Positions 23,655 through 47,759 of a stretch of 60,457 nt of DNA are shown here, in pieces. The stretch is taken from IMG/VR virus record IMGVR_UViG_3300046747_000764, positions 1 through 60,457 of that record. One strand, written 5' to 3'. Origin of the DNA: a virus. Under the pieces are notes generated by a model. It did no database searches and was not told where the DNA came from. It was given only the letters and a program-made list of their open reading frames with translations. Every line of letters starts with the position of its first letter. The first letter of the stretch is position 1. Made by a program: the position numbers and the translations under genes.

Positions 23655-25253
23655 TTATTGCTTGCCGGTCGGGGCCGAGCCGCCGTTATTCGACGGCCCG
23701 GGCCCCTTCCCCGGCACTCCCGCGCCATTGGCACTGCCGGGCTGTACCGCCGGCGGGGGGTTCGCTGCCACCGCGCTGATAGCGGCGATGTCGGTTACCA
23801 GCACCGGTCCGGTCGTCAGATAGACCATCGGCTCGTCGCCGCCGTCGACCGGATCCAGGCCCAGCACATCGCGCGCCTCGTTCAGCGCGTAGATGCCGTC
23901 CTTGACGTATTTATCTAGTATTGTGGCCTGCGCCTCAGGATCGAGATCGCGCTGTTCGACCCAAGCGAACTCGAGATCCTTGTACCCCATTAGGTTCTGA
24001 ATCACGAGGTCGGCCAATCGCTTGACCCACGCCATAATCGGGGCCAAGCCTTCTTGCAGAGCCACCTCTTGGGCGGTCGCCGCCGTGGCCCGGTTGACCT
24101 GCTGCGTGAATGCACTCGGCGGCAACGAGAACGCATAGCACACGATGCGCGCCAGCCACTCGTCGAAGACGTCCTTATGCGGCGGCTCGGTGAACGGCTG
24201 ATATTTGGCGCCGGCAGGGCCCCAGATCAGCTGGTTCTGGCCGCTAAGACTGCCCTTGATCTTGCTGTCGAACCAGTCCTGGAATTCGGCAATCTGCGCC
24301 GGGCTCCAGCCTTCCGGAGCATTGATGACACCTTGCGGCACGTTGCCGGCAGTAAAATACAGAAGCTGCTTCGCTTGGCGGCGCAGGCCGATGTTTATGG
24401 TGGTCCAAATTTGCTCTACTGGACTCCTGCCATACGCTTTGTGAATCCTTGGGTTGCGCGGCAGATAGATCAGCTGGCCGTCGTTGAATAGAGCGTTGGT
24501 TTCGCCTTCGGCAGTGTTTACCTTATTTCCGTCCTCGAGCAGCACCCAAGGGCGACCGTGAATCACTTGCTCATAAGCCGGCGCGGGCGGCGGCGGGCGG
24601 CGACCCGTCTCATCCAAGAGCACCTTGATAGTGGCGCCGTCTATTTGATCGAGTCCGATGATCTGGCCGCCGCGGTTGCGCCGGATCTCAAGCGCCGGCG
24701 CGTCGATCACCAGCAAATCGTCGATGAGCTTGCGTAGCCACGTCGCAAAGTCGTTATCGTTATCCGGCCTGCGCCAGAATGCAGTTAATTCCTTTATCCG
24801 CCCGTCGCCCGAGCCGTCGGCCGACTCGTCGATCGGCTTGATCTGCCATTCGAGGGCTCCGATCTGGTCTTTGCGCGTCTCAATGGCCAAGCTGACTATG
24901 TCGTAGGCTTCGGCGAGCGCGCGGAGCTCGGCGAAGCCTATTGGTTCGTAGGAGCGTGGGCGGAAATTGGTATTGAAAGCGGTCGGATAATCCCAGGCGC
25001 GCACATTGTGGCGAGCGTCCGGGATTAATGGATAGTTCGGCGAGAAGGCGCCAGACGTCGGTTGAAATACCGTGTCGAATTGCTGGAGGTTACCCCGGTC
25101 GTTGCCGCCGAGGCCGGTCGGGTCGTTGCCGACCGAATAGGAATAGATCGGCGCGCCCTTCTTTGGTTCGCGCTTCGACCGGAAGAACGAGGTCAGCCAG
25201 CTGACCCGATCGGCCAGTGATGTCTGCGTGCCGCCGGGTCCGGGAGAGGGCAT
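23655..25253 (-). CDS. Phage portal protein (532 aa)
   Basis: The protein carries the portal signature pattern: an N-terminal AEAYDIVSLAIETRKDQIG helix, the wing region WLRKLIDDLLVIDAPALEI and the YLPRNPRIHKAYGRSPVEQI segment. It continues with IVCYAFSLPPSAF, TAATAQEVALQEGLAP and a Pro/Gly-rich C-terminal tail. Length and motif order match HK97-family portals, which form the dodecameric ring at the capsid vertex used for DNA entry and exit. The ATG at 25251-25253 has GGGAGG about 12 bases upstream. It is the first gene of the leftward late block, diverging from the conjugation operon; the terminase genes that normally adjoin it are 20 kb away. Confidence 0.9.
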   Translation of the reverse strand: MPSPGPGGTQTSLADRVSWLTSFFRSKREPKKGAPIYSYSVGNDPTGLGGNDRGNLQQFDTVFQPTSGAFSPNYPLIPDARHNVRAWDYPTAFNTNFRPRSYEPIGFAELRALAEAYDIVSLAIETRKDQIGALEWQIKPIDESADGSGDGRIKELTAFWRRPDNDNDFATWLRKLIDDLLVIDAPALEIRRNRGGQIIGLDQIDGATIKVLLDETGRRPPPPAPAYEQVIHGRPWVLLEDGNKVNTAEGETNALFNDGQLIYLPRNPRIHKAYGRSPVEQIWTTINIGLRRQAKQLLYFTAGNVPQGVINAPEGWSPAQIAEFQDWFDSKIKGSLSGQNQLIWGPAGAKYQPFTEPPHKDVFDEWLARIVCYAFSLPPSAFTQQVNRATAATAQEVALQEGLAPIMAWVKRLADLVIQNLMGYKDLEFAWVEQRDLDPEAQATILDKYVKDGIYALNEARDVLGLDPVDGGDEPMVYLTTGPVLVTDIAAISAVAANPPPAVQPGSANGAGVPGKGPGPSNNGGSAPTGKQ

Positions 25254-25445
25254 TTGCCAGACTGCCTCCCGTCCCGTTGTTGAAATCGATGTGGAACGCG
25301 CTACGGGCGAAGAGAGGTAGAAACAGCCCGGGCATTTGTATTAAAAGGCGATCAAAGAGCCATCGGTCGGGCGATCGCTGGTAGCAACGAAGGACCGCGG
25401 CCGATTCCCAGAATATCCGAAGCCCGGCGACGGGCGCTGCAGGAC

Positions 25446-25640
25446 TTGGGCGACAAGGTGCGCTCGCGACGCGAGCAGCTCGGCCTCAGCCAGGTCGAAT
25501 TAGCTGATCGAATCGGGACAACTCAGTCGCGAATATCGCAGATCGAACGGGGCGCGACCATGCAGCTGAGCGTCTTGATGCTGTTCCGCATAGCGGAGGC
25601 TCTTGATCGCGAATTGTCGATTAGTCTGAGCCCGCGCTGA
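25446..25640 (+). CDS. Small XRE-family HTH regulator of the conjugation module (64 aa)
   Basis: A complete HTH is visible: LGLSQVELADRIGTTQSRISQIERG, written as two abutting parts LGLSQVELADRIG and TTQSRISQIERG, followed by LSVLMLFRIAEALD. The start is TTG at 25446; the frame is open upstream to 25284 without ATG or GTG, so the true start is uncertain. It is the first plus-strand gene after the portal and is followed by a perfect palindrome and the virB operon. The likely role is autoregulation and repression of transfer genes. Confidence 0.7.
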   Translation: MGDKVRSRREQLGLSQVELADRIGTTQSRISQIERGATMQLSVLMLFRIAEALDRELSISLSPR

Positions 25641-25645: not shown

Positions 25646-25668
25646 AATATTCCGCTTGACGGAATATT
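25646..25668. promoter_or_regulatory. Palindromic operator candidate
   Basis: Perfect 9-base inverted repeat AATATTCCG-cttga-CGGAATATT immediately downstream of the XRE gene and upstream of virB1. There is no T-run, so a terminator is less likely than a regulator-binding site for the adjacent HTH protein. A second overlapping ATATTCCG half-site follows in direct orientation. Confidence 0.55.
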
Positions 25669-25802
25669 CCGCGTGGCGGTATAGCCGCCGCGTCTGATTG
25701 GAGCCCGTACTCACATCGGGAAACCACCACTCCGCGCCGACGGCGTATTAGGGGAACGGCCGATGATTGACTGTAGCGTAAAACCGCAGTTGGCGCCTAG
25801 TG

Positions 25803-25865: not shown

Positions 25866-26447
25866 ATGTCTCATCGCCGCATAACTCAGCCGATTGTGGC
25901 TCTCATCGTGGCGCTATCGCCGGCGGTCGCTGTCGCCGACGAGTTCCGCGAGTTCCGCGCTAACATGGCCCGCTATGAAAGTGATGGCGGTCAGAACATC
26001 CCAAATTTTCGCTACACCGGGCCGGGCGGAAAGCACACCGCGGGCGGCGTGTGCCAAATGACGAACACGACATGGCGGCGGATCGCGCCTCTCATCGATA
26101 TCGATATCACAAAATTCGACGTAGCTGGAGCGGCCAGCGAGTTCGATCAATGGCGCGTGTGCTGGAAGCTCTGGTCGCTAGAGGGTTACAAGCCGTGGAC
26201 TTGCGACGGCTGTAATCCGAAACTGCGGAAGGCGCTGGCGGCGGCGACAGGTGATCAGAGACACGATTCGCAGCCGGTAATACCCCCGGAGGCGGTAGTG
26301 ACGGTAACCCCGCGCGCGCACGATTGGGATGTCTTCCCGGATCACGATGCGGAACGGCAGCCTTCGCAAGCGCCCGCCCCAGATGCAGCGCCACCGCAGA
26401 CCGACCAGGACGTGGTCGAGAAATCGGAGGAGGAACAGCCGCGATGA
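25866..26447 (+). CDS. virB1: VirB1-like lytic transglycosylase (193 aa)
   Basis: A signal peptide (MSHRRITQPIVALIVALSP, cleavage near AVA) precedes a lysozyme-like domain: ARYESDGGQNIPNFRY with the catalytic Glu in YES, then HTAGGVCQMTNTTWRRIAP. The C-terminal 70 residues are Pro/Glu/Asp rich and disordered. It should open the peptidoglycan for assembly of the secretion channel in the periplasm. It is the first gene of the transfer operon. The domain also resembles phage virion muramidases, so it could have been recruited from a phage. Confidence 0.75.
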   Translation: MSHRRITQPIVALIVALSPAVAVADEFREFRANMARYESDGGQNIPNFRYTGPGGKHTAGGVCQMTNTTWRRIAPLIDIDITKFDVAGAASEFDQWRVCWKLWSLEGYKPWTCDGCNPKLRKALAAATGDQRHDSQPVIPPEAVVTVTPRAHDWDVFPDHDAERQPSQAPAPDAAPPQTDQDVVEKSEEEQPR

Positions 26448-26506: not shown

Positions 26507-26682
26507 TGGAGACCCTAGAAGCGGCGCTCTCGTGGCTCACCGGATCGTTTGGCAAGGCCGCGATATACCTCATCCTGCTTGTGGGTGGTTTCGCCTGGAT
26601 TACGCACAGCCCAGTCGGTGAGACTGAACGCCCCCTCAGGAACCGCATTAAAAAGTTCTGCCGACGACTCACGGCGAAATGA
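26506..26682 (+). CDS. Mini VirB2-like single-hairpin membrane protein (58 aa)
   Basis: The sequence METLEAALSWLTGSFGKAAI followed by a hydrophobic YLILLVGGFAWI segment closely resembles the ILTWLTGPFGKAAV core of the true pilin gene 300 bases downstream. It lacks the signal peptide and second transmembrane helix, and ends in a basic RLRNRIKKF-like tail. It looks like a truncated pilin paralogue. It may cap, nucleate or regulate the pilus, or be a degenerate duplicate. Confidence 0.55.
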   Translation: METLEAALSWLTGSFGKAAIYLILLVGGFAWITHSPVGETERPLRNRIKKFCRRLTAK

Positions 26683-26797: not shown

Positions 26798-27094
26798 ATG
26801 CAACAATGGTCCATACGAGTCGCTGTGTTCGTCTTTGTCGGGCTCCTGCTTTACTCACCCTATTCGGCCTACGCGCAACAGGTCGATCCCACTACGATCG
26901 TCACCGCAATTCTGACGTGGCTCACAGGACCGTTCGGCAAAGCCGCGGTTGCGGTGGTCGTCGGCATCTCGGCGTTCGCCTGCATGCTCGGGCATCATCC
27001 TTATGCAGCCTTGGGATCGTTGGTGCTGGGCTGCTTCCTATTGTTCGGATCGCAATTTTTTGTCGACACATTTGTCGGCGGCGGCGCCGGATAA
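26798..27094 (+). CDS. virB2: VirB2 pilin (98 aa)
   Basis: A signal peptide (VFVFVGLLLYSPYSAYA, cleavage before QQVDP) is followed by two hydrophobic helices joined by a short polar loop (ILTWLTGPFGKAAVAVVVG, then LGHHPYAALGSLVLGCFLLF). This is the standard layout of the conjugative pilin. The WLTGPFGK motif matches proteobacterial VirB2. It is the main subunit of the extracellular pilus. A 115-base gap before it is the longest within the first part of the operon and could hold its own promoter. Confidence 0.85.
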   Translation: MQQWSIRVAVFVFVGLLLYSPYSAYAQQVDPTTIVTAILTWLTGPFGKAAVAVVVGISAFACMLGHHPYAALGSLVLGCFLLFGSQFFVDTFVGGGAG

Positions 27095-27386: not shown

Positions 27387-27827
27387 ATGGCTATAGGACG
27401 ACAAACTCTAAACGTAGATTTCCCGTGGTTCGCGCGGCGCTTCATTCGTAATACGCTGGGTCAGACCGCGCGCACGATCACGCAAGCGGCGAAGGCAGCG
27501 CGGAGCACTATCGACGAGGCGCCGCTCTTTGTGGCGGATACGCGGCCAGCGATGTTTTTCGGCGTCCCGCACCCAGCGGCCGTCCTCATAATCGCGCTAT
27601 TTGGGGAGAGCATCATCTTCGTTGGGCCGATCTATGCGTTCTGGGTGATCGTCCCGTGGATTGCTCTCCGCGCCCTAGTGCGGAAGGATTACAACGCCCC
27701 GCGCGCGCTTGTCCTATGGATAATGACCAAGGGCATGGCTTGGGAAAGCGCACGGTGGCTTGGCAGCTCGCCTTCCCCGTTTCCGGCCCGGCCCGGCAAG
27801 TATCCTCGAGGAATCTGGTCGCAATAG
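27387..27827 (+). CDS. virB3: VirB3-like inner-membrane protein (146 aa)
   Basis: The diagnostic VirB3 segment APLFVADTRPAMFFGVPHPA is followed by two hydrophobic stretches (VLIIALFGESIIFVG and FWVIVPWIALRAL) and RKDYNAPR. About 45 basic residues extend the N-terminus beyond the usual ~100-residue family size, and a Pro-rich tail ends the protein. VirB3 sits in the inner membrane with VirB4. The position between pilin and VirB4 agrees with the standard order. Confidence 0.8.
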   Translation: MAIGRQTLNVDFPWFARRFIRNTLGQTARTITQAAKAARSTIDEAPLFVADTRPAMFFGVPHPAAVLIIALFGESIIFVGPIYAFWVIVPWIALRALVRKDYNAPRALVLWIMTKGMAWESARWLGSSPSPFPARPGKYPRGIWSQ

Positions 27828-28408: not shown

Positions 28409-28634
28409 GTTAATCGCGGAGCGGTCCCGCGCCATAATCTGGTTTTTGGTCCGGGGATTGATAGAAGGTGCCGCCGCCTTGTTACTGATGTACGGCGGAT
28501 TGTGGAGTTTGCAATATCCGTTTCCCGACAATAATTGGTCATTGTTCGGAATCTGGTGCGTCATTTTCATTATAATAGATTTAACAGTGTCCACTGTGAG
28601 GGATCGTCGCCACAAGTCTCGCCAGCCGAGGTAG
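28392..28634 (+). CDS. Two-helix membrane protein (80 aa)
   Basis: The ATG at 28392 gives MLRNAKLIAERSRAIIWFL, a first hydrophobic helix (GAAALLLMYGGLW), a loop with PFPDNNW, a second helix (FGIWCVIFIIIDLTV) and a basic tail. It ends 2 bases before virB4. It may be an accessory inner-membrane partner of VirB3/VirB4; no family is recognised. Confidence 0.5.
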   Translation: MLRNAKLIAERSRAIIWFLVRGLIEGAAALLLMYGGLWSLQYPFPDNNWSLFGIWCVIFIIIDLTVSTVRDRRHKSRQPR

Positions 28635-28636
28635 CC

Positions 28637-31039
28637 ATGAGCAGTCTGGCCGAATTACTGGAGCGAACCTCCGCGCACTATCTGCCGTATCTCGGACATA
28701 GCCCGAATCCGCGCACCGTCCTGATGGAGGACGGCTCCTTCTTGAGCATGGCCCGGATCAGGGGCGTACCGCATGAGCTCGCCAGCGCTAGCGAGCGCAA
28801 CGCGGCCGGCAAGTTCCTCAATTCACTGTGGCGGCAGATAGCCGACGACAGCATCACGCTGGGTCTGCATCTGGTGCGGTACCGAAGACAGGACCAGCTC
28901 CCGGTGCCGGTGTTCTCGAACAAGTTCGCGAAGAAATTTGACGAAGCGCATCGGCGGTACATTCTGGACGCGTTGTTCGCGAACGTATGGTTTCTGAGCA
29001 TCATCGCGAGCCCGCGGGTGCCGATGGGCAATCAAAAGCAGAGCGGTCGCGAGATGGCCAGGTTCATGGCGCGGTTGCGGAAGAGGAAGGAGCCGAACGA
29101 TCCGTATCGAGTTCAGATGGTCGATGATCTATGGACCACCATCTCACGCACGCTAGAGGGTTACGATCTTCGTCGCCTCGGCTTGCGTGAGCAGAGCGGT
29201 CTCTTTTTTAGCGAGATCGCCGAGGCGCTACGGTTGATCCTTTATTGCCGGTATCTCCCGGTCGGGTTGACCGATGGTCCGCTCGGCAGCGCGGTCTATA
29301 CCGACCGAGCGGTCTTTGAGCGGCGGCACTATCGGCTACTCCATCCCGGCGGCGTCCGCTACGGCGCGCTGTTTGGCTTGCGCGAGTACATGGCGAGCAC
29401 ACGACCGGGTCTGTTCGACGCCCTTCTCCCGCTCCGTATGCCCCTCGTGCTGTCGCAGAGCTTCGGCTATCTGCCGCGCCAGACCGCGATTCAACGGCTG
29501 GCGAGGAAGCAGAACCAGATGGTCGGATCGTCCGACCGGGCCTACGCGCAAATCGCCGATATGGACAATGCGCTAAGTGAAGTAGCCGGCGGAGAGGTGG
29601 CCAGAGGGTTCCACCATCTTTCGCTCGCGATCTATGGCGACACCTATACAGAGCTAGAGCAGAATTCCGGAGAGGCGCAGAGCGCTCTCGCGCAATCAGG
29701 CGCCGTCATAGCGCAAGAAAGCCTCGCGATAGAGGCCGCCTATTACGCACAGCTCCCTGGAAACTTGGAGTCGCGAGCCCGCCCCGGCGTGATCTCCACG
29801 CGAAACCTCGCCCACTTTGCCGATTTCGGATCCTTCCCAGAAGGCTCTCGCGAAGGACGCTGGGGACCAGCGATCATGCGCTTTAAGACGGTGGGGCACA
29901 CGGCTTACGACTACATCCCGCACGTCGACGACGTGGGCATGACGGCTATTTTCGGTAAAACCGGGAGCGGCAAAACGACCTGGTTAATGGCTGTCCTTGC
30001 CATGTTCGATCAGTGCATCGGACCGGACGGCGTCATCTTCTTCTTTGATCGCGATCGCGGCGGCGAGTTGCTGGTTCGGGCAGTTGGAGGAACCTACATC
30101 GAGATTCGCGCTGGCGAGCCGAGCGGTCTGGTGCCGCTAAGAGGTTTGCAAAATACGCCGGCCGATCGAGAGTTCTTTGAGCGGTGGGTCAAGGCACTCA
30201 TCATGAGCGACGATCACGGCCCTCTACCGCCGCAAGATGACGCGCGCATTTCTCGCGGCACGAAGGCGACCATGCGGATGCCCGTGGAGCTTCGAACCTT
30301 AGAGGGGTTTCGGCAATTTCTTGGATGGCGGGACCCGCAGGGGGCGGGGGCCAGGCTAGAGCGATGGTGCCGCGGCGGCGCGCTTGGCTGGGCCTTCGAT
30401 GGCGACGAAGATCTGGTGGCCATCCAGGCTCGTATGATAGCAGGGATCCGCATATTCGGCTTTGATCTGACTTCGATTCTAGACAATGACGAGGTGATCG
30501 CCCCAGCCGCTCAATACCTGCTATATCGGATTGGCGCGACAATAGACGGTCGCCGAGCGGTTGTTTCGCTGGACGAAGCCCAGGCGTATCTTGCTCATCC
30601 GGGCTTCCAGGAAATGACGGAGAACTTTCTCCGGCGTGGCCGCAAGAACAACACCGTCGTTTTCATCAGCACTCAGCAGCCGGAAGATCTGCTCGGCGAC
30701 GGCGACACGTTTGGCACGACCATCATCGAGCAATGCCTTACCAAGATCTCCTTCCGGAACGACACGGCCAATGAGGAAGTGTGGCGCGGGAAAATGAAAT
30801 ACACGGAAGGCGAATTCCGCGCCATATCCGAAGACATGCTGCCTGGGGCGCGCCAATGCCTTATAAAACGGCCAGACGGCTCGGTGATTTTAGACTATGA
30901 TCTCACGCCAATGCGCAAGTTCGTAGCCGTGTTGTCGGGGCGGCAAAACACGGTAAGATACGCAGAGAAGCTTCGCCAGCAAACGACCGATTGGGTAGAG
31001 CCGTTTATGGAAACCTACGAGACAGCAGCGAGGGATTGA
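28637..31039 (+). CDS. virB4: VirB4 ATPase (800 aa)
   Basis: The ATG at 28637 (MSSLAELLERTSAHYLPYLG) is chosen over an upstream one that overlaps the previous gene. The C-terminal half has Walker A GKTGSGKTTW near residue 440, Walker B AVVSLDEAQAYL near 640, and the VirB4 signature FISTQQPEDLL and FRNDTANEEVWRG. The N-terminal half matches the CagE/TrbE/VirB4 domain. This hexameric ATPase energises pilin extraction and substrate transfer at the inner membrane. Length is usual for the family and both ATPase motifs are intact. Confidence 0.92.
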   Translation: MSSLAELLERTSAHYLPYLGHSPNPRTVLMEDGSFLSMARIRGVPHELASASERNAAGKFLNSLWRQIADDSITLGLHLVRYRRQDQLPVPVFSNKFAKKFDEAHRRYILDALFANVWFLSIIASPRVPMGNQKQSGREMARFMARLRKRKEPNDPYRVQMVDDLWTTISRTLEGYDLRRLGLREQSGLFFSEIAEALRLILYCRYLPVGLTDGPLGSAVYTDRAVFERRHYRLLHPGGVRYGALFGLREYMASTRPGLFDALLPLRMPLVLSQSFGYLPRQTAIQRLARKQNQMVGSSDRAYAQIADMDNALSEVAGGEVARGFHHLSLAIYGDTYTELEQNSGEAQSALAQSGAVIAQESLAIEAAYYAQLPGNLESRARPGVISTRNLAHFADFGSFPEGSREGRWGPAIMRFKTVGHTAYDYIPHVDDVGMTAIFGKTGSGKTTWLMAVLAMFDQCIGPDGVIFFFDRDRGGELLVRAVGGTYIEIRAGEPSGLVPLRGLQNTPADREFFERWVKALIMSDDHGPLPPQDDARISRGTKATMRMPVELRTLEGFRQFLGWRDPQGAGARLERWCRGGALGWAFDGDEDLVAIQARMIAGIRIFGFDLTSILDNDEVIAPAAQYLLYRIGATIDGRRAVVSLDEAQAYLAHPGFQEMTENFLRRGRKNNTVVFISTQQPEDLLGDGDTFGTTIIEQCLTKISFRNDTANEEVWRGKMKYTEGEFRAISEDMLPGARQCLIKRPDGSVILDYDLTPMRKFVAVLSGRQNTVRYAEKLRQQTTDWVEPFMETYETAARD

Positions 31040-31765: not shown

Positions 31766-31938
31766 AAGGTGTCGTATTGTTCTTGTCGGCATATCTTGTC
31801 GGAGTGCTCTTCACGGCATTGTATTTTACCATGGCCACTCACCCGTCTGCGCTAAACTATTGTGCTGGCTCAATGATAGGCGCGCTATTGTTCTTGGCCT
31901 GCAAACGTCTGCTTCAGAGATTCAAGGTGACGCTATGA
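31762..31938 (+). CDS. Two-helix membrane microprotein (58 aa)
   Basis: The product is MKGVVLFLSAYLVGVLFTAL, then ATHPSALNYCAGSMIGALLF and a basic KRLLQRFKVTL end. It is coupled on both sides by ATGA overlaps, the downstream one to virB5. Together with the preceding genes it makes a run of three consecutive membrane microproteins. Function unknown. Confidence 0.45.
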   Translation: MKGVVLFLSAYLVGVLFTALYFTMATHPSALNYCAGSMIGALLFLACKRLLQRFKVTL

Positions 31939-32711
31939 AACGGCTATTGATCGCGGGCGTAGCGGCCATTTCGCTGAGCACCTCTACTGCTCGCGCTGAT
32001 CTGCCGGTTGTCGACTTCACCGCTGTCGGCAAGCTGCTGGAGTCGATCGGCATCGAGGGCGCCCAGCTCGATGAGATGGTGGCCACATTCGAGGAGATCG
32101 TCCAGGTCTATACGATGGTCACGAACGTCTGGAACTCGGTCGCGGAGGTCGTTGGTACAGATCAGTGGGCGCCCGGCCTCAATGATCCCGGGCAACGCAA
32201 CCCGTTGCCCTTCGCAGCGGCGGACCATCCCGGCTGGGTCGGAGGATACAACGACCCGAGCGGCATACCGTTCGGTGGCCAGTATCTCTCGCAAAACACC
32301 GTGGGCGGCGATCTCTCTGTCTATAAGGGCGGCGACTTTGTCGGCTCGGAGCTCCTAAGGGGCATCCAGTCCGTGTCGTCGATGCAGGCCGTTGCCAGCA
32401 ACCATGTCCAATCCATCGAGACCAGGCTAATAGGGATAGTTGATTTATTCTCCCATCTCTCCGGCATCGCCACGATACAGGAAACCGACAGCCTGTCGGC
32501 GCGGCTCCATACCGAGCTGAACATCGCGCAATCGCAGCAGGTGCAGGCTCAGCAGGTTATGGCTGCGGCGCAGCTCCAGAGGGACGCCCGCGAGAACAAT
32601 CAGCACCAGTGGCTCTACCAGGATGAGATCAACGGAATTGTAGCGGCATGCGGCTCGGCGGCGTCAGCGGCCTCATTTATAACCATCCCAGCATGTGCCG
32701 CGGGAAAATGA
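31935..32711 (+). CDS. virB5: VirB5-like minor pilin/adhesin (258 aa)
   Basis: The ATG at 31935 gives a signal peptide (MKRLLIAGVAAISLSTSTARA/D). The mature protein is helical, with FEEIVQVYTMVTNVWNSVAE in the first part and long Gln-rich helices near the C-terminus (SQQVQAQQVMAAAQLQRDA), then a hydrophobic Cys-containing end. This matches the VirB5/TraC pattern. VirB5 sits at the pilus tip and affects recipient recognition, so the divergence here might define host range. Confidence 0.75.
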   Translation: MKRLLIAGVAAISLSTSTARADLPVVDFTAVGKLLESIGIEGAQLDEMVATFEEIVQVYTMVTNVWNSVAEVVGTDQWAPGLNDPGQRNPLPFAAADHPGWVGGYNDPSGIPFGGQYLSQNTVGGDLSVYKGGDFVGSELLRGIQSVSSMQAVASNHVQSIETRLIGIVDLFSHLSGIATIQETDSLSARLHTELNIAQSQQVQAQQVMAAAQLQRDARENNQHQWLYQDEINGIVAACGSAASAASFITIPACAAGK

Positions 32712-33019
32712 TCAGATTTGCCCTGCCCTTCGCCGTCGGTCTCACCATCGCATCGGCTGCGTTCGCGCAAGCGGGCGAGTTGCAATCAATAGCGCGCCAA
32801 TGTGCCGAGGAGATAGAGGAGGAAGCTGGGTGCACGACGGCCTGCACTAACGAAACGTGGCCGGCAGTAGCCAGGTGCGTAAACGCGAAACTCAAGACCC
32901 CCATGGCGCATGGCATAATCGAACGGTGCATTCGCCAGACGCAGAAAACCCGGCCAGCGACGGCATGTCAGCTTTGCGGTGACCCTGTCGCTGAAGTCTT
33001 CTTATGTGCCGACGGATAA
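32708..33019 (+). CDS. Secreted Cys-rich protein between VirB5 and VirB6 (103 aa)
   Basis: The ATG at 32708 overlaps the virB5 stop as ATGA and gives a signal peptide (MIRFALPFAVGLTIASAAFA/Q). The mature protein has eight Cys, including AGCTTACTNETW and ACQLCGD, compatible with four periplasmic disulphides. Entry-exclusion proteins often occupy this position between virB5 and virB6, but most are lipoproteins, so that role is only a suggestion. It overlaps virB6 by 16 bases. Confidence 0.5.
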   Translation: MIRFALPFAVGLTIASAAFAQAGELQSIARQCAEEIEEEAGCTTACTNETWPAVARCVNAKLKTPMAHGIIERCIRQTQKTRPATACQLCGDPVAEVFLCADG

Positions 33020-34727: not shown

Positions 34728-34903
34728 TTGGCGCTAACTTACGGATGGTCGCGGGTGTGATTCTATTTATCGGCTTAGCATACCCAGCTACGTATTTATT
34801 CCTAAGAGCAGGGGCGTATCCTGCTTGGCACTTATGGTGCCAGTTTTCTCAAGGCGACCCGGTGTGTAACTCCTTCTGGTCGTGGGTGGTGTCGTTGAAA
34901 TGA
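34724..34903 (+). CDS. Membrane microprotein between VirB7 and VirB8 (59 aa)
   Basis: MIGANLRMVAGVILFIGLAY and PATYLFLRAGAY form a hydrophobic hairpin, followed by WHLWCQFSQGDPVCNSFWSW with two Cys. It is coupled by ATGA overlaps at both ends, to virB7 and virB8. No recognised family. Confidence 0.5.
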   Translation: MIGANLRMVAGVILFIGLAYPATYLFLRAGAYPAWHLWCQFSQGDPVCNSFWSWVVSLK

Positions 34904-38939: not shown

Positions 38940-40814
38940 ATGCCCTATGCCCGACCTCTAATCCTTCTCGTCTCCCCGTTTTTTATCGCCATAGCCTGGC
39001 TTCTGTGCGCATCAGAAGTCTGGAGCACAGGCACCGACACCCCGTTCTCGGTGTGGGCCTGGTGGGACGCGCTTGATTGGTGGGCAGACGACTGGTGGGT
39101 CACGCTATGGATCGCTCTCGGGGCGTTCATACCGACGATATTTCTGTGTCTATTCCTGGCGGGGACGGTCCAATGGCTACGCCTCCGCGGCCGCGTGCAG
39201 CGCCGGATGACCGGCAGAGGCACGCAAGTCAGCACCTGGGGAAGGCGGCGATACGATGCGGTGCCGGAAATCATACCGGCCGCGCCGGCTCTCACGGACA
39301 ACCACGGGCACAGCTACTGGCGAACCATGCAGGAGGTGCAAAAGCGATTCGATGGACCTGTTCTACCGCATGGCGGCATAGCCGCCGGCGAGGCTTACAG
39401 GGTCGATCATGATCGGTCGGTCGCGGGCATAGAGTTCGATCCGAGGAACCAAGCCACCTGGGGATTGGGTGGCAAAGCGCCCCTCCTTATCGATTCGTGC
39501 ACCAGGGGTGCGCGGGCGTTCCATGCGTGTGAATTCGGTCCCACCGGGTCCGGCAAGAGCGCCGAATTGGTCACGAAGATCCTCGGGTGGACCGGGGCGG
39601 CGGTGGTCTTTGACCCCACTATAGAGATCGGCCCTCTGCTTGATCGGGCTCTACGACGGCGCGGGAGAAATTGGCGGGTCTTTCACATTGGCCTTCCCAA
39701 TTCAGGAAAGCCTATCCGAATGACCGGGTATAACATCCTGTCGTGGATCGACATCAACCATCCGGACGCGGAACTGCACGTGAGAGGAATAGCTCACACG
39801 ATCTATGACGAGACCTCTGGGGAGAAGGATGGTAGAGCAGAGGCCCGGGCAGACGATCCATTTTTTGGTCCTATGGGACGATTGCTCGTTAGCTGCTTGC
39901 TCGGTCATCTCGTGTGGCAAGACCCAGACAAAATCGAGATCAGTCTAGCCACCTTTGTCGCGCTGATGACCGTCCCGGAGGACGATATGATGGCGCTCCT
40001 GAATTCAATCCGAGCCCAGAGTCCAAGCGGAATGGCACGCCGATTGGCTGGCACCATCATGGGAACGAGAGCCGCCGAAACGTTCTCTGGGATCTATTTA
40101 AACGCCGTAAAGGGTGTAGAGTGGCTAATATTTTCCAGCGCTTATGCCGACCTCTTGTCGGTAGGAGAATTCGATCCGCGGTTCCTGCTTATCGGTAACT
40201 GCACGACCTTTCTCAACATTGATGAGCGCTCGATTAAGTTGGCGCCGGTCCTTCCGCGAGTGATCTTCAACGGCATCCTGAACACGATCTTTATGGCCGA
40301 GGGGCATTCGCATGGGCTGATCGCGCTCTTTATCGACGAGGCCGACACGCTACGATATTTCCCGCCGCTCCTTACAGCGCGCGACAGAGGGCGGCATTAC
40401 AAAATCGTGTTGCACATGCTGTGGCAATCGATCGGCCAGATGCGAACCATCTGGGGAATGGAGCAAACGCGGGCGTGGCTCGACGCGTTCTCGTGGGTCG
40501 GGTTCTCTGGAATACGAGCCGCTAGCGCCGGCAAAGATCTGTCGACTGAACTCGGAAGCCATGGCGTTCTGGCGTACAGCGAAGGCGTAAACCAGGGCCA
40601 GCAGCAGCCGTTTGGACTATCATTCGGCACCTTCTCGCGCGGTCAAAACGTCAACACGCACGAGATTAAGCGTGCCCTCATCACCGCCTCAGAGATGCAG
40701 CAAGACCTCCGCGCCGACGAAAAAATCATCGTCCCGGACACCGGTTTGCCGATTCGTTGCGGCCGATGCCCGTGGTTCCGTAGAGAAGAATTTGTTGAGA
40801 TGGTGGAGCAGTAA
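38940..40814 (+). CDS. virD4: VirD4/TraG-type coupling protein (624 aa)
   Basis: Two N-terminal membrane segments (LILLVSPFFIAIAWLL and WIALGAFIPTIFLCLFL) are followed by the coupling-protein ATPase. Walker A is GPTGSGKSAEL near residue 200, then VFDPTIEIGPLL, IFMAEGHSHGLIALFIDEAD (Walker B) and LHMLWQSIGQMRTIWG. This protein brings the relaxosome to the channel. Its presence argues for DNA transfer and not only protein secretion. It starts 3 bases after virB11. Confidence 0.9.
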   Translation: MPYARPLILLVSPFFIAIAWLLCASEVWSTGTDTPFSVWAWWDALDWWADDWWVTLWIALGAFIPTIFLCLFLAGTVQWLRLRGRVQRRMTGRGTQVSTWGRRRYDAVPEIIPAAPALTDNHGHSYWRTMQEVQKRFDGPVLPHGGIAAGEAYRVDHDRSVAGIEFDPRNQATWGLGGKAPLLIDSCTRGARAFHACEFGPTGSGKSAELVTKILGWTGAAVVFDPTIEIGPLLDRALRRRGRNWRVFHIGLPNSGKPIRMTGYNILSWIDINHPDAELHVRGIAHTIYDETSGEKDGRAEARADDPFFGPMGRLLVSCLLGHLVWQDPDKIEISLATFVALMTVPEDDMMALLNSIRAQSPSGMARRLAGTIMGTRAAETFSGIYLNAVKGVEWLIFSSAYADLLSVGEFDPRFLLIGNCTTFLNIDERSIKLAPVLPRVIFNGILNTIFMAEGHSHGLIALFIDEADTLRYFPPLLTARDRGRHYKIVLHMLWQSIGQMRTIWGMEQTRAWLDAFSWVGFSGIRAASAGKDLSTELGSHGVLAYSEGVNQGQQQPFGLSFGTFSRGQNVNTHEIKRALITASEMQQDLRADEKIIVPDTGLPIRCGRCPWFRREEFVEMVEQ

Positions 40815-41896: not shown

Positions 41897-44800
41897 ATGA
41901 TGACGTTCCGGGCAGGCTCGGTCGGCTCGTCGACGGTCAGCTCGGCAGTCGCGGAGTACTACTTAACAGACACTGTACAATCGGAGACGATGCGGGCGGC
42001 CGAGTACTACGCGGGCCGCGAAGAACGGGCGGATAGTTTCTGGCGGGCCGAGGTGATGGACGGTCGGCTAGAGATGGGGCAACACCGGGCCGAGCTGCGA
42101 GCGGATCTATCGCCAGAGATGATCGCGCGGCTTGGCTTGAACGGGAGCATGGGGCCGGCGTTCACGCTGCCGCTGACGCAAGAGCGGGTCGCCAATCTGC
42201 TGAGCCTGAGACAGGCGGATGGAAGCGCGGTCGAGGGGCGGCAAATACACCGGGCGACGGCCGAGGGGAAGAAGCCTCCCACAGGGTTCATCGACCTGAC
42301 GTTCTCGGCGAGTAAGTCGCTCTCGGTCGCGTGGGGGTTGGCGGCCGATCCTCGCGAGCGAGAACAGCTTATCGGGATACACCGGGCGGCGGTCGAGAAG
42401 ACGATGTCCTATGTGGCGGAGGAGATTGGTTTCACCCGGCGTGGTGGATCGCGACGAAGCCGAACGGAGCCCGGTGAGATCGCGTGGCTAGGCTTCCAGC
42501 ATTACACATCGAGGCCGGTCGATAAGCAGGCCGCGGACCCGAACCTGCACACCCACGTCATCGTGTTGAATGATGTGATGACCGAGAACGGTCACATGGG
42601 CGCGATCGATCTGGCGCGGCTGAACGGTAGGATCAAAGAATTCGGCGCGGTTTACGAGGCATATGTGGGGGCCGAGGCGCGCAAGCTTGGTGTGGCGGTG
42701 CAGTTCGACGAACGCCGCGAGACGGTCCAGCTGTCGGACATCCCGGAGCACATCAACGAGGTGTTCAGCAAGCGCTCCCAGCAAGTAGAGGAGGCGGCGA
42801 AGGATCTTTCCAGCAAGATGGGGCTGGAATGGGAAACCCTGAACGAGGAGCGTCGATCCGGGATAAGCCGTAGAGCGGTAATTCTGAGCCGGCAATCGAA
42901 GGATGGCGAGAGGAACGACTTCGGTTCCTGGTCACGCCAGGCGGATGAGGCCGGCTACCGGTATGAGAGCGTGCTCGGTCGTGTCGAGACGGTAGAAGCA
43001 CCGTTGCCCATACCGGAGCCGGAGCCGATTGATGATCTGTCGAAGCAGTTGGTGGAGGCGATCACGACCGCGCTTCGGTACAGCGATCCGGAGACGCAGG
43101 CAGATCGTCTGATCTGGGAGGTTGACCAGATCATGCGGGACCACAAAGCGTCGGGCGATCCGACACCGCGCTTGGCACAGGATCTCATGCGCGGGATCAC
43201 CGCGACCCTATCGGCACAATCGGCAACGGAACCGGAGGCGCGGCTGATCGCGGCAACCGGCGAGGCGATAGAGCAGCACGCCGAACGGGGGCGGGCCAGG
43301 CAGGAGCGGATAGCAGCTGACACGGCGCGACAGCGCGCGGCCTATGAGACGGCGCTGCCGCGGCTGCAGGAAGAGTTTCGTCGGCGGTCGGTGCTCGATG
43401 GGAACGAACTCAGGCGCGTAGCGGCACAGGCCCTCGTCACGTCCGGGATCAAGGACGCTGGGCTCGACCTCGACGCAATCATGGGATTATTTCGGCGAGA
43501 CGGCGTCGATCATGAGGGCCAGAGAGCACCGTTGGTCACACAGGAGCTGAGTGTGCGCGGTGTGATGCGGGAGCGGGTTACGACCGGCCTTCACGTCGCT
43601 CAGGAGCGGGAGGTGATTCGCCTGGCCGCGGCTGCGGCCGCAGATGGGTCAGGAGCGATGTCCGAAGCGAAGATAGATCTTGCGGCCCGCGTATTCCTGT
43701 CCGCTCATCCGGAAATAGATGGAGCTGGCGAGCATTGGCAGGCTCAACGGCGGATGATGGACCACCTTGCGACCGGTGGCCGGCTTGGGGTGGTGATCGG
43801 TGTCCCCGGGTCGGGAAAGAGCTTCGCACTGTCGCCCCTGGTGCAGGCGTGGAAGGACGATGGGCGATCTATCTATGGGATCTCGCTAGCGTGGCGGCAA
43901 GCCGGCGATCTGGAAGCGGCCGGCATCACCGAGCGAGCGTCGATCGCGGCGTTCCTGAAACGGGTTGAAACGGGTCGATACGAGTTGGATCGGAACAGCG
44001 TGGTCGTGGTGGATGAGGTAGGGCTGGTCGGCTCGCGGCAGATGCTGGAGCTGCTCCGAATCCAGGAACGGACGGGAGCGCAATTTGTCATGGTCGGCGA
44101 TCCGCGGCAGGCCCAGCCGATCGAAGGCGCGGCCGGTCTCGAGCTGCTACGAGCCGCGCTAGGCGATGAGGCGATCCCGCGGTTGCTGTACTCGACCCGA
44201 CAACACAGCGAGCGCGAGCGGGAGATCGCTGCACTGTTCCGGCGGGGCCAGGCAGCGGAGGCGCTGGAGATGAAACAGGAGGACGGCACGGCGTTCCTGG
44301 TGCCGGGCGGTCGGGAGGCGACGGTCGTTCGAGTAGCGGAGCTGTGGCGCGAGCGCATGGAGGCGAATCGGGGCACGCGGGATTTTACGTTGAGCGTGTC
44401 GACGCCGACGAATGCCGACGCGAGGGAGATCGGCGCGGCGATTCGAGTCGAGCTGCGGCGGGCCGGTCAGCTTGGAGCGGATGTACAGACCATGCGGGCG
44501 ATCGACCGCACCGGGGAGACCTACGACATATCCCTGGCGATCGGCGAGCGCCTGCGGCTGTTCGACCGAGTGTGGGATCGCGCCCTGCATCAGGCGATAG
44601 CGAACAATGGCGACGTGGTCGAGCTGCGTTCGCTACGGCCGGACGGGATGGTGGTGCGCAACGCCAGCGGGACGGAAGGTCTGGTGGAGTGGGACAAGAT
44701 CAGGACGCACCCTGAGGCCCCTGTGAGGCTCGCCCATGGGTATGCTTTGACGGTGGACACCGCACAAGGGAGCACCGCGACCGAGCACATCCACGCGCTT

Positions 44801-45037
44801 CCCTCGGGCTCCCAGGATACGCATGGGTTCAAGGCCTACGTCGCGGCCACACGCCACCGAGAGCAAAACTGGATCGTGATCGATGAGGCATCGGAGCGGG
44901 GCCAACTCGACGAACGGCGCATGATCGGTCATCACGTCGAAGTGCAAGCGCCGGATATCTGGCAGAACGTGGCGAAGAATGTCGCGCGGCAGCCGGTCAA
45001 GGCGCCGGCGATCTCGGTGTTGCGCAAGAGCGCATGA
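41897..45037 (+). CDS. MobF (TrwC-type) relaxase-helicase (1,046 aa)
   Basis: The N-terminal relaxase domain has paired tyrosines (AEYYLTD at 19-25 and AAEYYAGREE at 34-43). A His triad follows, H202 in GFQHYTSRP and H218/H220 in ADPNLHTHVIVLND. FIDLTFSASKSLSVAWGLA is the TrwC hallmark. The C-terminal SF1 helicase has Walker A GVPGSGKSFAL near 635, VVVDEVGLVGSRQM and DTAQGSTATEH. This enzyme nicks one strand at oriT, stays linked to it and unwinds it for transfer. It is intact and is the last plus-strand gene of the module. Confidence 0.92.
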   Translation: MMTFRAGSVGSSTVSSAVAEYYLTDTVQSETMRAAEYYAGREERADSFWRAEVMDGRLEMGQHRAELRADLSPEMIARLGLNGSMGPAFTLPLTQERVANLLSLRQADGSAVEGRQIHRATAEGKKPPTGFIDLTFSASKSLSVAWGLAADPREREQLIGIHRAAVEKTMSYVAEEIGFTRRGGSRRSRTEPGEIAWLGFQHYTSRPVDKQAADPNLHTHVIVLNDVMTENGHMGAIDLARLNGRIKEFGAVYEAYVGAEARKLGVAVQFDERRETVQLSDIPEHINEVFSKRSQQVEEAAKDLSSKMGLEWETLNEERRSGISRRAVILSRQSKDGERNDFGSWSRQADEAGYRYESVLGRVETVEAPLPIPEPEPIDDLSKQLVEAITTALRYSDPETQADRLIWEVDQIMRDHKASGDPTPRLAQDLMRGITATLSAQSATEPEARLIAATGEAIEQHAERGRARQERIAADTARQRAAYETALPRLQEEFRRRSVLDGNELRRVAAQALVTSGIKDAGLDLDAIMGLFRRDGVDHEGQRAPLVTQELSVRGVMRERVTTGLHVAQEREVIRLAAAAAADGSGAMSEAKIDLAARVFLSAHPEIDGAGEHWQAQRRMMDHLATGGRLGVVIGVPGSGKSFALSPLVQAWKDDGRSIYGISLAWRQAGDLEAAGITERASIAAFLKRVETGRYELDRNSVVVVDEVGLVGSRQMLELLRIQERTGAQFVMVGDPRQAQPIEGAAGLELLRAALGDEAIPRLLYSTRQHSEREREIAALFRRGQAAEALEMKQEDGTAFLVPGGREATVVRVAELWRERMEANRGTRDFTLSVSTPTNADAREIGAAIRVELRRAGQLGADVQTMRAIDRTGETYDISLAIGERLRLFDRVWDRALHQAIANNGDVVELRSLRPDGMVVRNASGTEGLVEWDKIRTHPEAPVRLAHGYALTVDTAQGSTATEHIHALPSGSQDTHGFKAYVAATRHREQNWIVIDEASERGQLDERRMIGHHVEVQAPDIWQNVAKNVARQPVKAPAISVLRKSA

Positions 45038-45231: not shown

Positions 45232-45684
45232 TCAATGATCTGATTGCTCTAGCAGCGCGATGATTCGATCCAGTTTTTCCGCCTCGATGCGCGCTAACGA
45301 GATCTGAAGCTCTTCGATCTCTTCCTTGGCCCGCAGGTTGACCTCGTAATCGTGCTGCGAGTGGAACCGATCGCGGTCGGCCTGCCGGTTCTGCGCCATC
45401 AAGATCAGCGGCGCCGCGTAAAACGCCTGCAGCGAAAAGAAAAGGTTCAGCAACACAAAGGGATAGAGATCCCACTGATACCGCCACCCCACGACGTTCA
45501 AGATCACCCAGGCAATCGTGATCCCGGTTTGTATGAGGATAAACGGCCAGGAGCCGATCGCCGCGGCGACGATATCGGCGATGTGCGCTGACCGCTGCAG
45601 CTCGTCGAGGTGCCGCTGATGCCAGTGCCAATCCATCGCCACAACGGCTTTATCTCGCGCCCCGCTGTTGCCGTTCGTATTCAA
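45232..45684 (-). CDS. DUF1003 membrane protein (150 aa)
   Basis: Two adjacent helices (FILIQTGITIAWVILNVVG and FVLLNLFFSLQAFYAAPLIL) are followed by MAQNRQADRDR and a C-terminal coiled coil (EEIEELQISLARIEAEKLD). This is the DUF1003 pattern, whose biological role is unknown. Its location directly after the terminase group is unusual. It could be superinfection-related or lysis-related cargo, as membrane proteins with cytoplasmic coiled coils sometimes are. Confidence 0.75.
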   Translation of the reverse strand: MNTNGNSGARDKAVVAMDWHWHQRHLDELQRSAHIADIVAAAIGSWPFILIQTGITIAWVILNVVGWRYQWDLYPFVLLNLFFSLQAFYAAPLILMAQNRQADRDRFHSQHDYEVNLRAKEEIEELQISLARIEAEKLDRIIALLEQSDH

Positions 45685-45686
45685 GG

Positions 45687-45914
45687 CTAGCTCGAAGAGG
45701 CGCCCTTGCGGCGCTCACGAGCGAGGATGCGGCTAACCTGGCTCTGGTGAATGCCGAAGATCTGGCCGATCTGCTCTTGTGTATGGTTCCCTTCCGCGTG
45801 GATTCGTCTGATGTCTGAGATGTCGCTATCCGTCATCTCGGGGACATGCGGATTAAAGAAAGACCAGACCCTGGATAGGAAGCTCACGGCTGTTTCCTCT
45901 GCTGGTTTTCCCAC
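45687..45914 (-). CDS. Small HTH protein overlapping terminase 3' end (75 aa)
   Basis: The C-terminal half is a helix-turn-helix: DISDIRRIHAEGNHTQEQIG followed by IFGIHQSQVSRILARERR, similar to resolvase or sigma-region-4-type HTHs. The longest start overlaps the terminase stop by 31 bases; an alternative ATG at 45836 would leave just the HTH. It may regulate late genes or bind the packaging site. Confidence 0.55.
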   Translation of the reverse strand: MGKPAEETAVSFLSRVWSFFNPHVPEMTDSDISDIRRIHAEGNHTQEQIGQIFGIHQSQVSRILARERRKGASSS

Positions 45915-47374
45915 TCGACAGAACCTGGTGCGTAGAGCGGGGTCGGTGCGGGCGGCACATTCGCCTCGGCCAACTTGCGGGCCTGCTCGCGGTAGAGCTC
46001 GAAGATCCCGGAATTTGACATCGGCTCGACGAGGAGGTCAGTTAGGGCCCAAATCAAACTGTCCGCATTATCGGGTGACCGATCGCCCAAATATCCCGCG
46101 GTCGAGAAATTGAGCATCTGATCCTCGAGCTGAGGAAATTGCCCAGCGTGCCGTACCTGGTCTTTGTGCCAGACGCCGTCTCGCTCGTAGCCGTAGAGAG
46201 CCGAGACCGGTTCGGCGCGGATGGCCTTGCCGCGCGACGCGGTCACCACCTGCACCGGCACATTGGGGTCGACCGTGTGCAGGAGGGCGCGCACCATATC
46301 GCCGCCGTAGTTCTGCTCAGCGACGATGCGGTCGGCTTTGAACTCTTTATAGGCGGTGACGGCGACGCGCGCCCAGCCTTCAGGGGCCAGGTTGCACGTC
46401 CGATCGGCCAGCACATACGCCATGTTGTCCGTGGCTAAGCCAACGACCACGATGCCGATGTTGTCGGATCTCTCGTCTTCGTCACCCCGGGTGCCCGATG
46501 GGTCGACGGCGACGACAACTCGCTTGAGCGTGGCCGGCACATCTTCTGGCAGGCAACGCGCGTGCTCGATGGACTCGAATGTCCAGAGCGCCCCGTCGAC
46601 TTCGGTTTGATAAGCGCCAACGAAGAACCGTTTGCGTTGTCGCTCTGGCAACGCATCGAGTTCCGCAAGCATTTCGGACGTGAGATTCTCGGCGTTGTCA
46701 CCGGGATTGATGTAATCGTAGCGATACTGTTCTGGATTGCTGGTCGGTTGCAGCGTGACTGGATCGCGCCCCTGCACAAACCGGACATGGCTCCAATGGC
46801 GAGTGCCAACCGGGTTGAGGTCGTAATAGGCGCGCTGAATTAAGGCGGGGTGTTTCTCTGCTAACCGGGTTAATGCGATCGTGAGTGATGAGTATGGGAT
46901 CTGAGAGCACTCGTTGAAATACAACGTGCTGAACTCTTGCCCCAAGATTTTCTCGACGCGTTCCTTCTCGTCTAATCCGCTTATCCAGATCTGCGATCGG
47001 CCTGGGTAGACCTCGACATAGCCGTCGCTACGCTTGTCGATGAGCGTGGCGTCGGGATAGCATAACCGCAGCGCTTTAGGCAGCGTGTCGAGCCAAATCG
47101 AGGCTCTTGCAGCGTTGGCGCGGAATCGCAGGATGGCGTGGCGAGAACCCGGCGCTAAAAGCGCCCTGGTTAGAACGGCATAGCAAAAGAGGTAAGTTTT
47201 CCCTGATCGCGCGCCGCCGTACAACAGGGTGTGGCGCTGAGGACCGGCCAACAAATGAAGCGCCGCGAGTTGTTTGGGATTAGAGGCGCGAGAAGGATCT
47301 TTGGCAGATTCAAAGCCGAGCGGAATCACCGGTGATTGCGATGACGATGGGCTCGCCGCCTTTCTTGCCTTCAT
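45884..47374 (-). CDS. terL: Phage terminase large subunit (496 aa)
   Basis: Walker A is YGGARSGKT (residues ~52-60) and Walker B/catalytic Glu is STLYFNECSQI (E155). The C-terminal nuclease has D291 in VAVDPSG, E353 in IVAEQNYGGD and D435/D438 in SPDNADSLIWAL, all acidic residues of the RNase-H-like nuclease being present. The protein pumps DNA into the capsid and cuts it. Its start overlaps the small subunit gene by 65 bases; a shorter start is possible. An intact motor suggests real packaging capacity. Confidence 0.92.
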   Translation of the reverse strand: MKARKAASPSSSQSPVIPLGFESAKDPSRASNPKQLAALHLLAGPQRHTLLYGGARSGKTYLFCYAVLTRALLAPGSRHAILRFRANAARASIWLDTLPKALRLCYPDATLIDKRSDGYVEVYPGRSQIWISGLDEKERVEKILGQEFSTLYFNECSQIPYSSLTIALTRLAEKHPALIQRAYYDLNPVGTRHWSHVRFVQGRDPVTLQPTSNPEQYRYDYINPGDNAENLTSEMLAELDALPERQRKRFFVGAYQTEVDGALWTFESIEHARCLPEDVPATLKRVVVAVDPSGTRGDEDERSDNIGIVVVGLATDNMAYVLADRTCNLAPEGWARVAVTAYKEFKADRIVAEQNYGGDMVRALLHTVDPNVPVQVVTASRGKAIRAEPVSALYGYERDGVWHKDQVRHAGQFPQLEDQMLNFSTAGYLGDRSPDNADSLIWALTDLLVEPMSNSGIFELYREQARKLAEANVPPAPTPLYAPGSVEWENQQRKQP

Positions 47375-47759
47375 GTTGGTGGTCGACGGTCTCCTTCCAG
47401 CCCATCCGCGTCTTTGCCCAGAACATCGCCAGAGAGCCGCGCGTGGGTTCGTGCGTTACAGAGGTCACGCCGGGTATCGGCATTCCTATGATCGTCGCGA
47501 ACATAAACTGAGCGACACGGAAGTTCGCCTCGATCTCGGCCCGCGCGAGCTCGTCCTTGAAGTGCTTGCGCAGCGTGGGATGCGAAATGCCGATCTGCCC
47601 CGCGATGCTGTCTTGCGGCGTGCCGCAGCCCGCCATCTCCTTAACGAGGCGGCGCTGATTATCAGTTGGTGCGAACGGGGGTTGGCCGCGGGCCTTACGC
47701 TGCGGCGCGGTCGTGTCGAGCGGTGGCGATTTCGTCGAAGGCTTCTCCTGACCAGCCAT
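47310..47759 (-). CDS. terS: Terminase small subunit-like HTH protein (149 aa)
   Basis: An HTH is visible near residues 33-65 (RLVKEMAGCGTPQDSIAGQI then GISHPTLRKHFKDELARAE), followed by a helical oligomerisation region and a segment WAKTRMGWKETVDHQHEG that often precedes TerL. Location immediately upstream of TerL and the HTH support DNA recognition at the packaging site. The family match is by pattern only. Confidence 0.7.
   Translation of the reverse strand: MAGQEKPSTKSPPLDTTAPQRKARGQPPFAPTDNQRRLVKEMAGCGTPQDSIAGQIGISHPTLRKHFKDELARAEIEANFRVAQFMFATIIGMPIPGVTSVTHEPTRGSLAMFWAKTRMGWKETVDHQHEGKKGGEPIVIAITGDSARL

What the first reader, a model, noticed from the sequence alone, without database searches (positions are those of the whole stretch)
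23655..47759. Complete VirB/D4-MobF conjugation module inserted between phage portal and terminase genes
Portal (23,655-25,253) and terminase large/small (45,884-47,759) are both leftward and normally near-adjacent. A plus-strand block of about 19.6 kb separates them. It contains VirB1-B11, VirD4 and a MobF relaxase, all with intact active-site motifs, plus its own regulator and operator-like sites. Phage packaging and conjugation are two complete DNA-export systems in one genome. If both work, this would be a phage-plasmid able to spread by virion and by mating. An alternative is that virion-encoded T4SS proteins alter the host envelope to help phage entry or exit. I know of no standard group with this gene order, but I could not search.
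Basis: partly seen in the sequence, partly recalled or inferred. Interest (0 to 1): 0.95.

Follow-up and report, generated by a model that had tools for sequence, protein, structure and literature searches.

The report
Phages carrying complete conjugation machinery
This piece of a bacterial virus genome carries a set of genes for bacterial mating next to its own DNA-packaging genes, and three other viral genome records plus one plasmid from a cultured bacterium show a similar pairing, which suggests mobile elements that may spread in two different ways.

Summary
Between an open portal gene (23,655-25,253) and terminase genes (45,884-47,759) lies a plus-strand block with VirB2-VirB11 (VirB7 weak), VirD4 and a MobF relaxase; VirB1 is by position only. 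The window is a truncated phage record: no major capsid gene was recognised. 'Phage-plasmid' is not shown for it; an inferred integrase tail beside a tRNA-like site suggests integration. TerL-portal spacing varies in relatives, and in 199 related loci the main T4SS proteins had no match. A displaced terL 3' end at one border argues against misassembly. VirB4 profile scans of viral contigs found three others (107, 73, 134 kb); all have terminase, portal, VirB, VirD4 and MobF genes; the largest ends in a 127-bp repeat. A circular plasmid of a cultured bacterium, Skermanella rosea pSR-4, carries both sets too. Phage and plasmid VirB4 intermix in a tree. Best reading: temperate alphaproteobacterial phages have repeatedly captured conjugation modules. 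Whether virions and mating both work is untested.

The parts
241..15756 (-). giant spike-like or secreted-looking proteins (3246, 448 and 1498 aa); accessory late region; MCP and tail genes presumably beyond the left end
   Evidence: relatives carry spike-like genes around the portal
18235..18642 (-). Gp80-type fibre protein (PHROGs: head protein)
   Evidence: Pfam PF23140 9e-18; phrog_240 4e-10
23655..25253 (-). phage portal protein, without the C-terminal extension of L005
   Evidence: phrog_2662 4e-71; 73% to L005 portal
25262..25282 (-). weak terL-end-like fragment next to the portal start
   Evidence: 16 of 2000 shuffles reach its score against the L002 terL end, but 1055 of 2000 against L005; suggestive only
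25341..25640 (+). XRE-type regulator before the virB operon (start codon uncertain)
   Evidence: PF01381 1e-15
25646..25679 (.). tandem 17-nt operator-like repeat
25866..26447 (+). VirB1 position
   Evidence: no Pfam hit, no solved-structure hit; place matches transglycosylase genes of plasmids
26509..26682 (+). short VirB2-like reading frame, possible second pilin copy
   Evidence: translation resembles VirB2; inference
26801..27094 (+). VirB2 pilin
   Evidence: PF04956 1.5e-12, above cut-off
27387..27827 (+). VirB3
   Evidence: PF05101 1.5e-11
28535..31039 (+). VirB4 ATPase (true start probably downstream)
   Evidence: PF03135 1.4e-35; TrwK chain 3e-92
31860..32711 (+). VirB5
   Evidence: PF07996 1e-9
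32648..33019 (+). small exported-looking protein in the place of the EexN gene
   Evidence: position as in two plasmids; no Pfam hit; inference
33004..34485 (+). VirB6
   Evidence: PF04610 8e-16
34485..34727 (+). VirB7-like lipoprotein
   Evidence: PF17413 3e-4, below cut-off; lipobox read by eye
34882..35598 (+). VirB8
   Evidence: PF04335 1e-35
35595..36782 (+). VirB9
   Evidence: PF03524 3e-24
36730..37902 (+). VirB10
   Evidence: PF03743 2e-45
37851..38936 (+). VirB11 ATPase
   Evidence: PF00437 8e-27
38940..40814 (+). VirD4 coupling protein
   Evidence: PF02534 8e-35; Walker A and DEA motif; no solved-structure hit by sequence
41897..45037 (+). MobF relaxase-helicase
   Evidence: PF08751 4e-44, PF13604 2e-35; TrwC chain 3e-14
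45232..45633 (-). DUF1003 protein
   Evidence: PF06210 6e-35
45650..45688 (-). displaced terL 3'-end fragment
   Evidence: aligns to L002 terL end, 0 of 2000 shuffles as high; 233 of 2000 against L005
45687..45884 (-). small HTH protein at the terL 3' end
   Evidence: HTH hits, all below their cut-offs
45884..47374 (-). terminase large subunit
   Evidence: phrog_979 3e-54
47310..47759 (-). terminase small subunit
   Evidence: phrog_309 1e-13
51104..51871 (-). serine recombinase, also near TerL in relatives
   Evidence: PF00239 2e-25; 52% in L003, 56% in L007
56745..57494 (-). replication (primosomal-type) protein
   Evidence: phrog_3992 8e-24
60209..60293 (+). tRNA-like segment, probable attachment site
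   Evidence: Rfam tRNA-Sec model 27 bits, below gathering 47; ARAGORN finds no gene; inference
60303..60457 (-). C-terminus of a tyrosine-integrase-like protein running off the contig
   Evidence: motif read by eye, recalled; no Pfam hit for the 50-aa piece

Best explanation
The window is a fragment of a temperate, probably integrating, tailed phage of an alphaproteobacterium that has captured a plasmid-type conjugation module (VirB/VirD4 of the MPF_T type with a MOB_F relaxase) at the 3' end of terL. Shown: both gene sets are open in one contig, on opposite strands, and a similar pairing recurs in other viral records. Inferred: the XRE regulator keeps the virB operon low while the phage is quiet; after excision or replication MobF nicks an origin of transfer, and VirD4 and VirB export the element to a neighbour by contact, while the lytic programme packages it in virions. 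The element would thus have two routes of spread.
For: Gene content and motifs. The frames assigned in the block have no internal stop, and the terL and portal frames beside it are open. A displaced terL end at the border points to insertion in evolution. Two VirB4 profile scans of viral contigs, with nearly the same patterns, returned the same three loci; all three records carry TerL and MobF (4 of 4 with the window), portal and VirB1, B3-B6, B9-B11 and VirD4 (VirB8 in two of three). One ends in an exact 127-bp repeat. Tail sheath proteins are found in two. In each of the three the T4SS shares the composition of its phage genes (0.82-0.87). Control: in 24 bacterial genomes with a related VirB4 (16 of 391 in one family, 8 of 385 in the class), TerL was found in 23 and never within 100 kb of that VirB4. 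pSR-4, a circular plasmid of a cultured bacterium, is annotated with terL, portal, protease, capsid and tape measure genes and with transglycosylase, VirB3, VirB8-B11, VirD4 and MobF genes; its VirB4 is a hypothetical protein matched.
Against: No transfer, virion or expression data. No origin of transfer was looked for or found. The window lacks major capsid and tail genes, and no major capsid protein was recognised in the three other viral records either (one candidate tried). The viral collection holds only contigs called viral, so TerL beside a T4SS there is partly selection. The make-up of the window's block matches its flanks (0.47-0.50) no better than other elements (0.44-0.61). The comparison of the border fragments with L005 gave nothing. 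Integrase and attachment site are read from short pieces.
Confidence: 0.58

Rival explanations
1. Assembly chimera: a conjugative plasmid contig and a phage contig were joined by the assembler.
For: The exact terL-T4SS-portal order was not seen in any other locus, nor a VirB4 family match in the records of 14 TerL relatives; composition of the window's block is not specific to its flanks; no read data available.
Against: Both junctions fall between open genes; a displaced terL end marks one border; no shared exact word of 9 or more bases between the two junctions; comparable pairings exist in three other contigs and in a circular plasmid.
Confidence: 0.1
2. Two unrelated elements in one molecule: a conjugative plasmid or ICE with a phage integrated in it, or the reverse, with no joint function.
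For: In pSR-4 the annotated phage genes form one stretch of about 39 kb and the transfer genes lie in the other 62 kb; the VirB4 tree needs four separate changes between carriers; a paper seen in passages cites a Vibrio cholerae conjugative plasmid that contains a prophage.
Against: In the window leftward phage genes lie on both sides of the block, and no recombinase was recognised inside it; in the 107-kb and 134-kb records VirB1 lies within 4 kb of TerL.
Confidence: 0.2
3. The T4SS is used by the phage for something other than its own conjugation, for example protein delivery, entry exclusion or change of the host envelope.
For: Some T4SSs serve such ends in other bacteria (recalled); a small exported-looking protein lies in the place of EexN.
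Against: A MobF relaxase and VirD4 accompany the T4SS in the window and in all three other records, which points to DNA transfer.
Confidence: 0.1

Closest known systems
Skermanella rosea plasmid pSR-4 (NZ_CP086115.1)
   Same: Terminase, portal, protease, capsid and tape measure genes plus VirB-type genes, VirD4 and MobF in one circular replicon; serine recombinase 47% like the window's
   Different: Transfer genes begin about 25 kb from terL; carries a ParB-type gene and is a plasmid; PLSDB types it as non-mobilizable; a prophage in a plasmid is not excluded
Acidiphilium cryptum plasmid pACRY03
   Same: Nearest VirB4 in the plasmid search (48%), same gene order HTH, virB1-B11, virD4; typed MOBF, MPF_T
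   Different: No phage gene annotated in the 42 kb read; RepC plasmid
Brevundimonas phages Polewnik and Strzyga
   Same: Portal 46% identical
   Different: terL and portal adjacent in Polewnik, with tail genes and no T4SS annotated in the 41 kb read
P1-like phage-plasmids and plasmids derived from them
   Same: Phage-derived elements with conjugation genes (PMC10879196, passages)
   Different: [quoted passage not shown] the passages mention no full T4SS
'Conjugative prophage' Phi1207.3 of Streptococcus pyogenes
   Same: Prophage reported to move by a conjugation-like process (PMC4260502, passages)
   Different: The words relaxase and type IV have no occurrence in that paper's main text; the mechanism is stated as still to be elucidated

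Membership tests
MPF_T (VirB/VirD4) type IV secretion system | VirB3, VirB4, VirB6, VirB8, VirB9, VirB10, VirB11 present in order | tested here: met
MPF_T (VirB/VirD4) type IV secretion system | VirB1 lytic transglycosylase | tested here: inconclusive
   by position only; no hit
MOB_F conjugative element | TrwC-type relaxase fused to helicase | tested here: met
MOB_F conjugative element | VirD4 coupling protein | tested here: met
MOB_F conjugative element | origin of transfer | not tested
   no search for it was made
Caudoviricetes (tailed phage) | terminase and portal | tested here: met
Caudoviricetes (tailed phage) | major capsid and tail genes | tested here: inconclusive
   apart from a Gp80-type fibre none recognised in the window, which is truncated at both ends
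Phage-plasmid | plasmid replication or partition genes with phage core | tested here: inconclusive
   none recognised in the window; window truncated
Integrating temperate phage or ICE | integrase and attachment site | tested here: inconclusive
   integrase tail by motif only; tRNA-like segment below cut-off

The most novel reading that the evidence does not exclude
A recurring kind of dual-mode mobile element exists in Alphaproteobacteria: temperate phages that keep a virion programme and a conjugation programme in one genome and spread by both, having taken up the transfer module several times, often beside the packaging genes.
Probability: 0.48. Interest if true: 0.93.

Novelty: new variant of a known kind. 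Interest (0 to 1): 0.83.

Why it matters
Phages and conjugative elements are usually treated as two separate routes of gene flow. An element that holds both could cross barriers that stop one of them (receptors, restriction, lack of contact), and would bear on how plasmids and phages turn into each other. A cultured carrier, Skermanella rosea with pSR-4, makes the question testable.

Tried and rejected
Single-protein scans of viral contigs with the window's VirB4 and MobF found no relatives; the alignment scans with VirB4 did. A VirB11 scan returned five loci: the same three records, L281, without TerL in its record, whose frames look like an ordinary T4SS, and L283, with TerL in its record but no T4SS seen by eye in the stretch read; these two were dropped. 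The Pfam sheath model had no match in four records, while PHROGs found sheaths in two. Two alphaproteobacterial plasmids with TerL, RHOApd of Rhodovastum atsumiense and a Rhodoplanes serenus plasmid, show phage genes but no annotated T4SS in the stretches read (97 of 115 kb and 50 of 54 kb). Composition gave no verdict on the window. In the VirB4 tree pSR-4 was labelled a plain plasmid because its phage genes were seen only later; it sits beside the 134-kb record, in a join that the program flags as long branches meeting. In the phage collection VirB4 matched only four unannotated faecal contigs at 24-28%, not followed. Of 82 plasmids with a match to the pSR-4 TerL only 50 were listed, and they were not checked for transfer genes. 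Paper searches; among the titles listed (25 of 725, 15 of 32) none reports a phage with a full T4SS; the 2021 phage-plasmid survey is not held.
Full report
What is there. The window is a 60,457-base virus record without terminal repeats. The leftward phage genes include TerS, TerL and portal, a Gp80-type fibre, a RusA-like resolvase and a primosomal-type protein, an HU-like protein and a serine recombinase. Between portal and TerL stands a plus-strand block. Pfam recognises VirB3, B4, B5, B6, B8, B9, B10, B11, VirD4 and a TrwC relaxase-helicase. VirB2 lies in another frame than the ORF first searched (26,801-27,094, PF04956), and a VirB7-like lipoprotein follows VirB6 (below cut-off). VirB1 is by position only. 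Walker A motifs and the relaxase HTH motif are present; VirB4 aligns with TrwK and MobF with TrwC of solved structures. An XRE regulator precedes the operon, followed by a tandem 17-nt repeat. The order is that of conjugative plasmids such as pACRY03.

How the join compares with relatives. TerL relatives came from viral contigs (80 loci kept of 548) and from bacterial genomes (38 loci); with one portal locus that makes 119. Ten of the 119 have a homologous portal, beginning 16-469 nt after the aligned TerL end. The VirB3-B6, VirB8-B11, VirD4 and MobF proteins of the window have no match in any of them at 1e-5; the one hit of the block is the VirB1-position protein in L111. No VirB4 family match was found in the full records of 14 of these relatives. 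In L005, with portal 73% identical, terL and portal are 6 nt apart, and its portal is 822 aa against 532 in the window. A portal profile scan gave 80 more loci (kept of at least 554); TerL was detected in 30, with gaps of 105 nt to 6.5 kb between aligned ends, and no T4SS match in any of the 80; in the other 50 the gap is unknown. In five read in detail, a protease-like and a capsid-like gene follow the portal, and in four of the five large spike-like proteins lie between terL and portal (all named by eye). So the terL-portal gap accepts cargo in this group, the window has the largest cargo seen, and its capsid and tail genes most likely lie beyond the left end.

Is the join real? A fragment at 45,650-45,688 matches the terL 3' end of the relative with the closest TerL, L002, better than all 2000 shuffles; a second, weaker one lies beside the portal start (16 of 2000), and the two match each other (31 of 2000). 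Against L005 neither stands out (233 and 1055 of 2000). A small HTH gene separates terL from the first fragment. This is what an insertion near the terL end would leave. The two junctions share no exact word of 9 bases. Composition does not decide: block against flanks 0.47-0.50, flanks against each other 0.37-0.45.

Other elements. Two VirB4 profile scans of viral contigs, with nearly the same patterns, returned the same three loci, in records of 106,826 (G425), 72,780 (G426) and 134,436 bases (G427). All three hold TerL, a MobF relaxase over cut-off and VirB1, B3, B4, B5, B6, B9, B10, B11 and VirD4; VirB8 was found in two, VirB2 and VirB7 in none by this search, though a VirB2-like frame was read in G427. 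Portals are assigned in G425 and G426 by PHROGs and in G427 by Pfam (PF04860, 1e-34). Tail sheaths are found in G425 and G427, a tape measure in G425, a head protease in G426. No major capsid protein was recognised; one candidate, in G427, had no hit. G427 ends in an exact 127-base repeat, as a circular assembly would. From TerL to VirB1 it is about 1.7, 15.6 and 3.6 kb in G425, G426 and G427, and the two point away from each other. In the window the virB operon points away from the portal gene but towards terL. In pSR-4 terL and VirB1 point apart, about 25 kb away. The collection contains only contigs called viral, so the presence of TerL is partly selected; the short distance in two of three is not.

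Control. In 391 genomes of one family, 16 have a VirB4 match at 1e-120; in 385 genomes of the class, 8 at 1e-90. In these 24, TerL was found in 23, never within 100 kb of that VirB4; the five same-contig cases lie more than 200 kb away. Several of these contigs are short, so a nearby TerL could be missed.

A cultured carrier. Skermanella rosea plasmid pSR-4, 100,864 bases, circular, is annotated with terL, portal, minor head protein, prohead protease, major capsid protein, connectors, tape measure and lysozyme and with transglycosylase, VirB3, VirB8-B11, VirD4, MobF and ParB-type genes; its VirB4 is annotated as hypothetical and matches the window's at 36%. Its phage genes form one stretch of about 39 kb, so a prophage inside a conjugative plasmid remains possible.

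Origin. In the VirB4 tree the four viral-record proteins fall in one supported group of eight rows with three plasmids, pSR-4 among them, and one bacterial contig, but not together: holding the four, or the three others, as one clade is rejected (p-AU 1.7e-61 and 1.8e-43). Long branches are flagged, the tree is a quick one, and the sample was drawn from search hits. The window's VirB4 is nearest to pACRY03 (49%). This favours several captures.

Mechanism. Shown: gene content, order, motifs, recurrence. Inferred: regulation by the XRE protein, use of both routes, integration at a tRNA-like site, and the host group, which rests on relatives. The tRNA and integrase reading at the right end is my own reading of the sequence.

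Literature. Searches; no title listed reports such an element. Passages only were read, from PMC10879196, PMC11389934, PMC4260502, PMC5154133 and PMC4148982. The library lacks most subscription journals and all preprints.

Verdict. A real and unusual arrangement, now one of a small set; dual transfer is likely enough to test and not shown.

Noticed in passing
L259:8232-11222 (-): VirD4 of the 107-kb record is 996 aa and carries a LAGLIDADG domain in an insertion near its Walker A region, which looks like an intein.
   Followed up: partly
L173, L175, L193, L196, L005; window 241-16442: Large spike-like proteins, several with an apparent signal peptide (read by eye), sit between terL and portal or after portal in this phage group, an odd feature for virion proteins.
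   Followed up: no
window 26509-26682 and 26801-27094: Two VirB2-like reading frames in tandem; only the second has a Pfam hit (the first was not searched).
   Followed up: partly
window 60209-60457: A tRNA-like segment beside an integrase-like C-terminus at the contig end, a probable attachment site.
   Followed up: partly
G427 10592-13048 (L265): Helicase-like gene with an intein-like stretch, read by eye.
   Followed up: no
NZ_OW485605.1 (L276, L277): Rhodovastum plasmid RHOApd has phage structural genes with RepA and ParA but no annotated T4SS in the 97 kb read, an ordinary phage-plasmid.
   Followed up: partly
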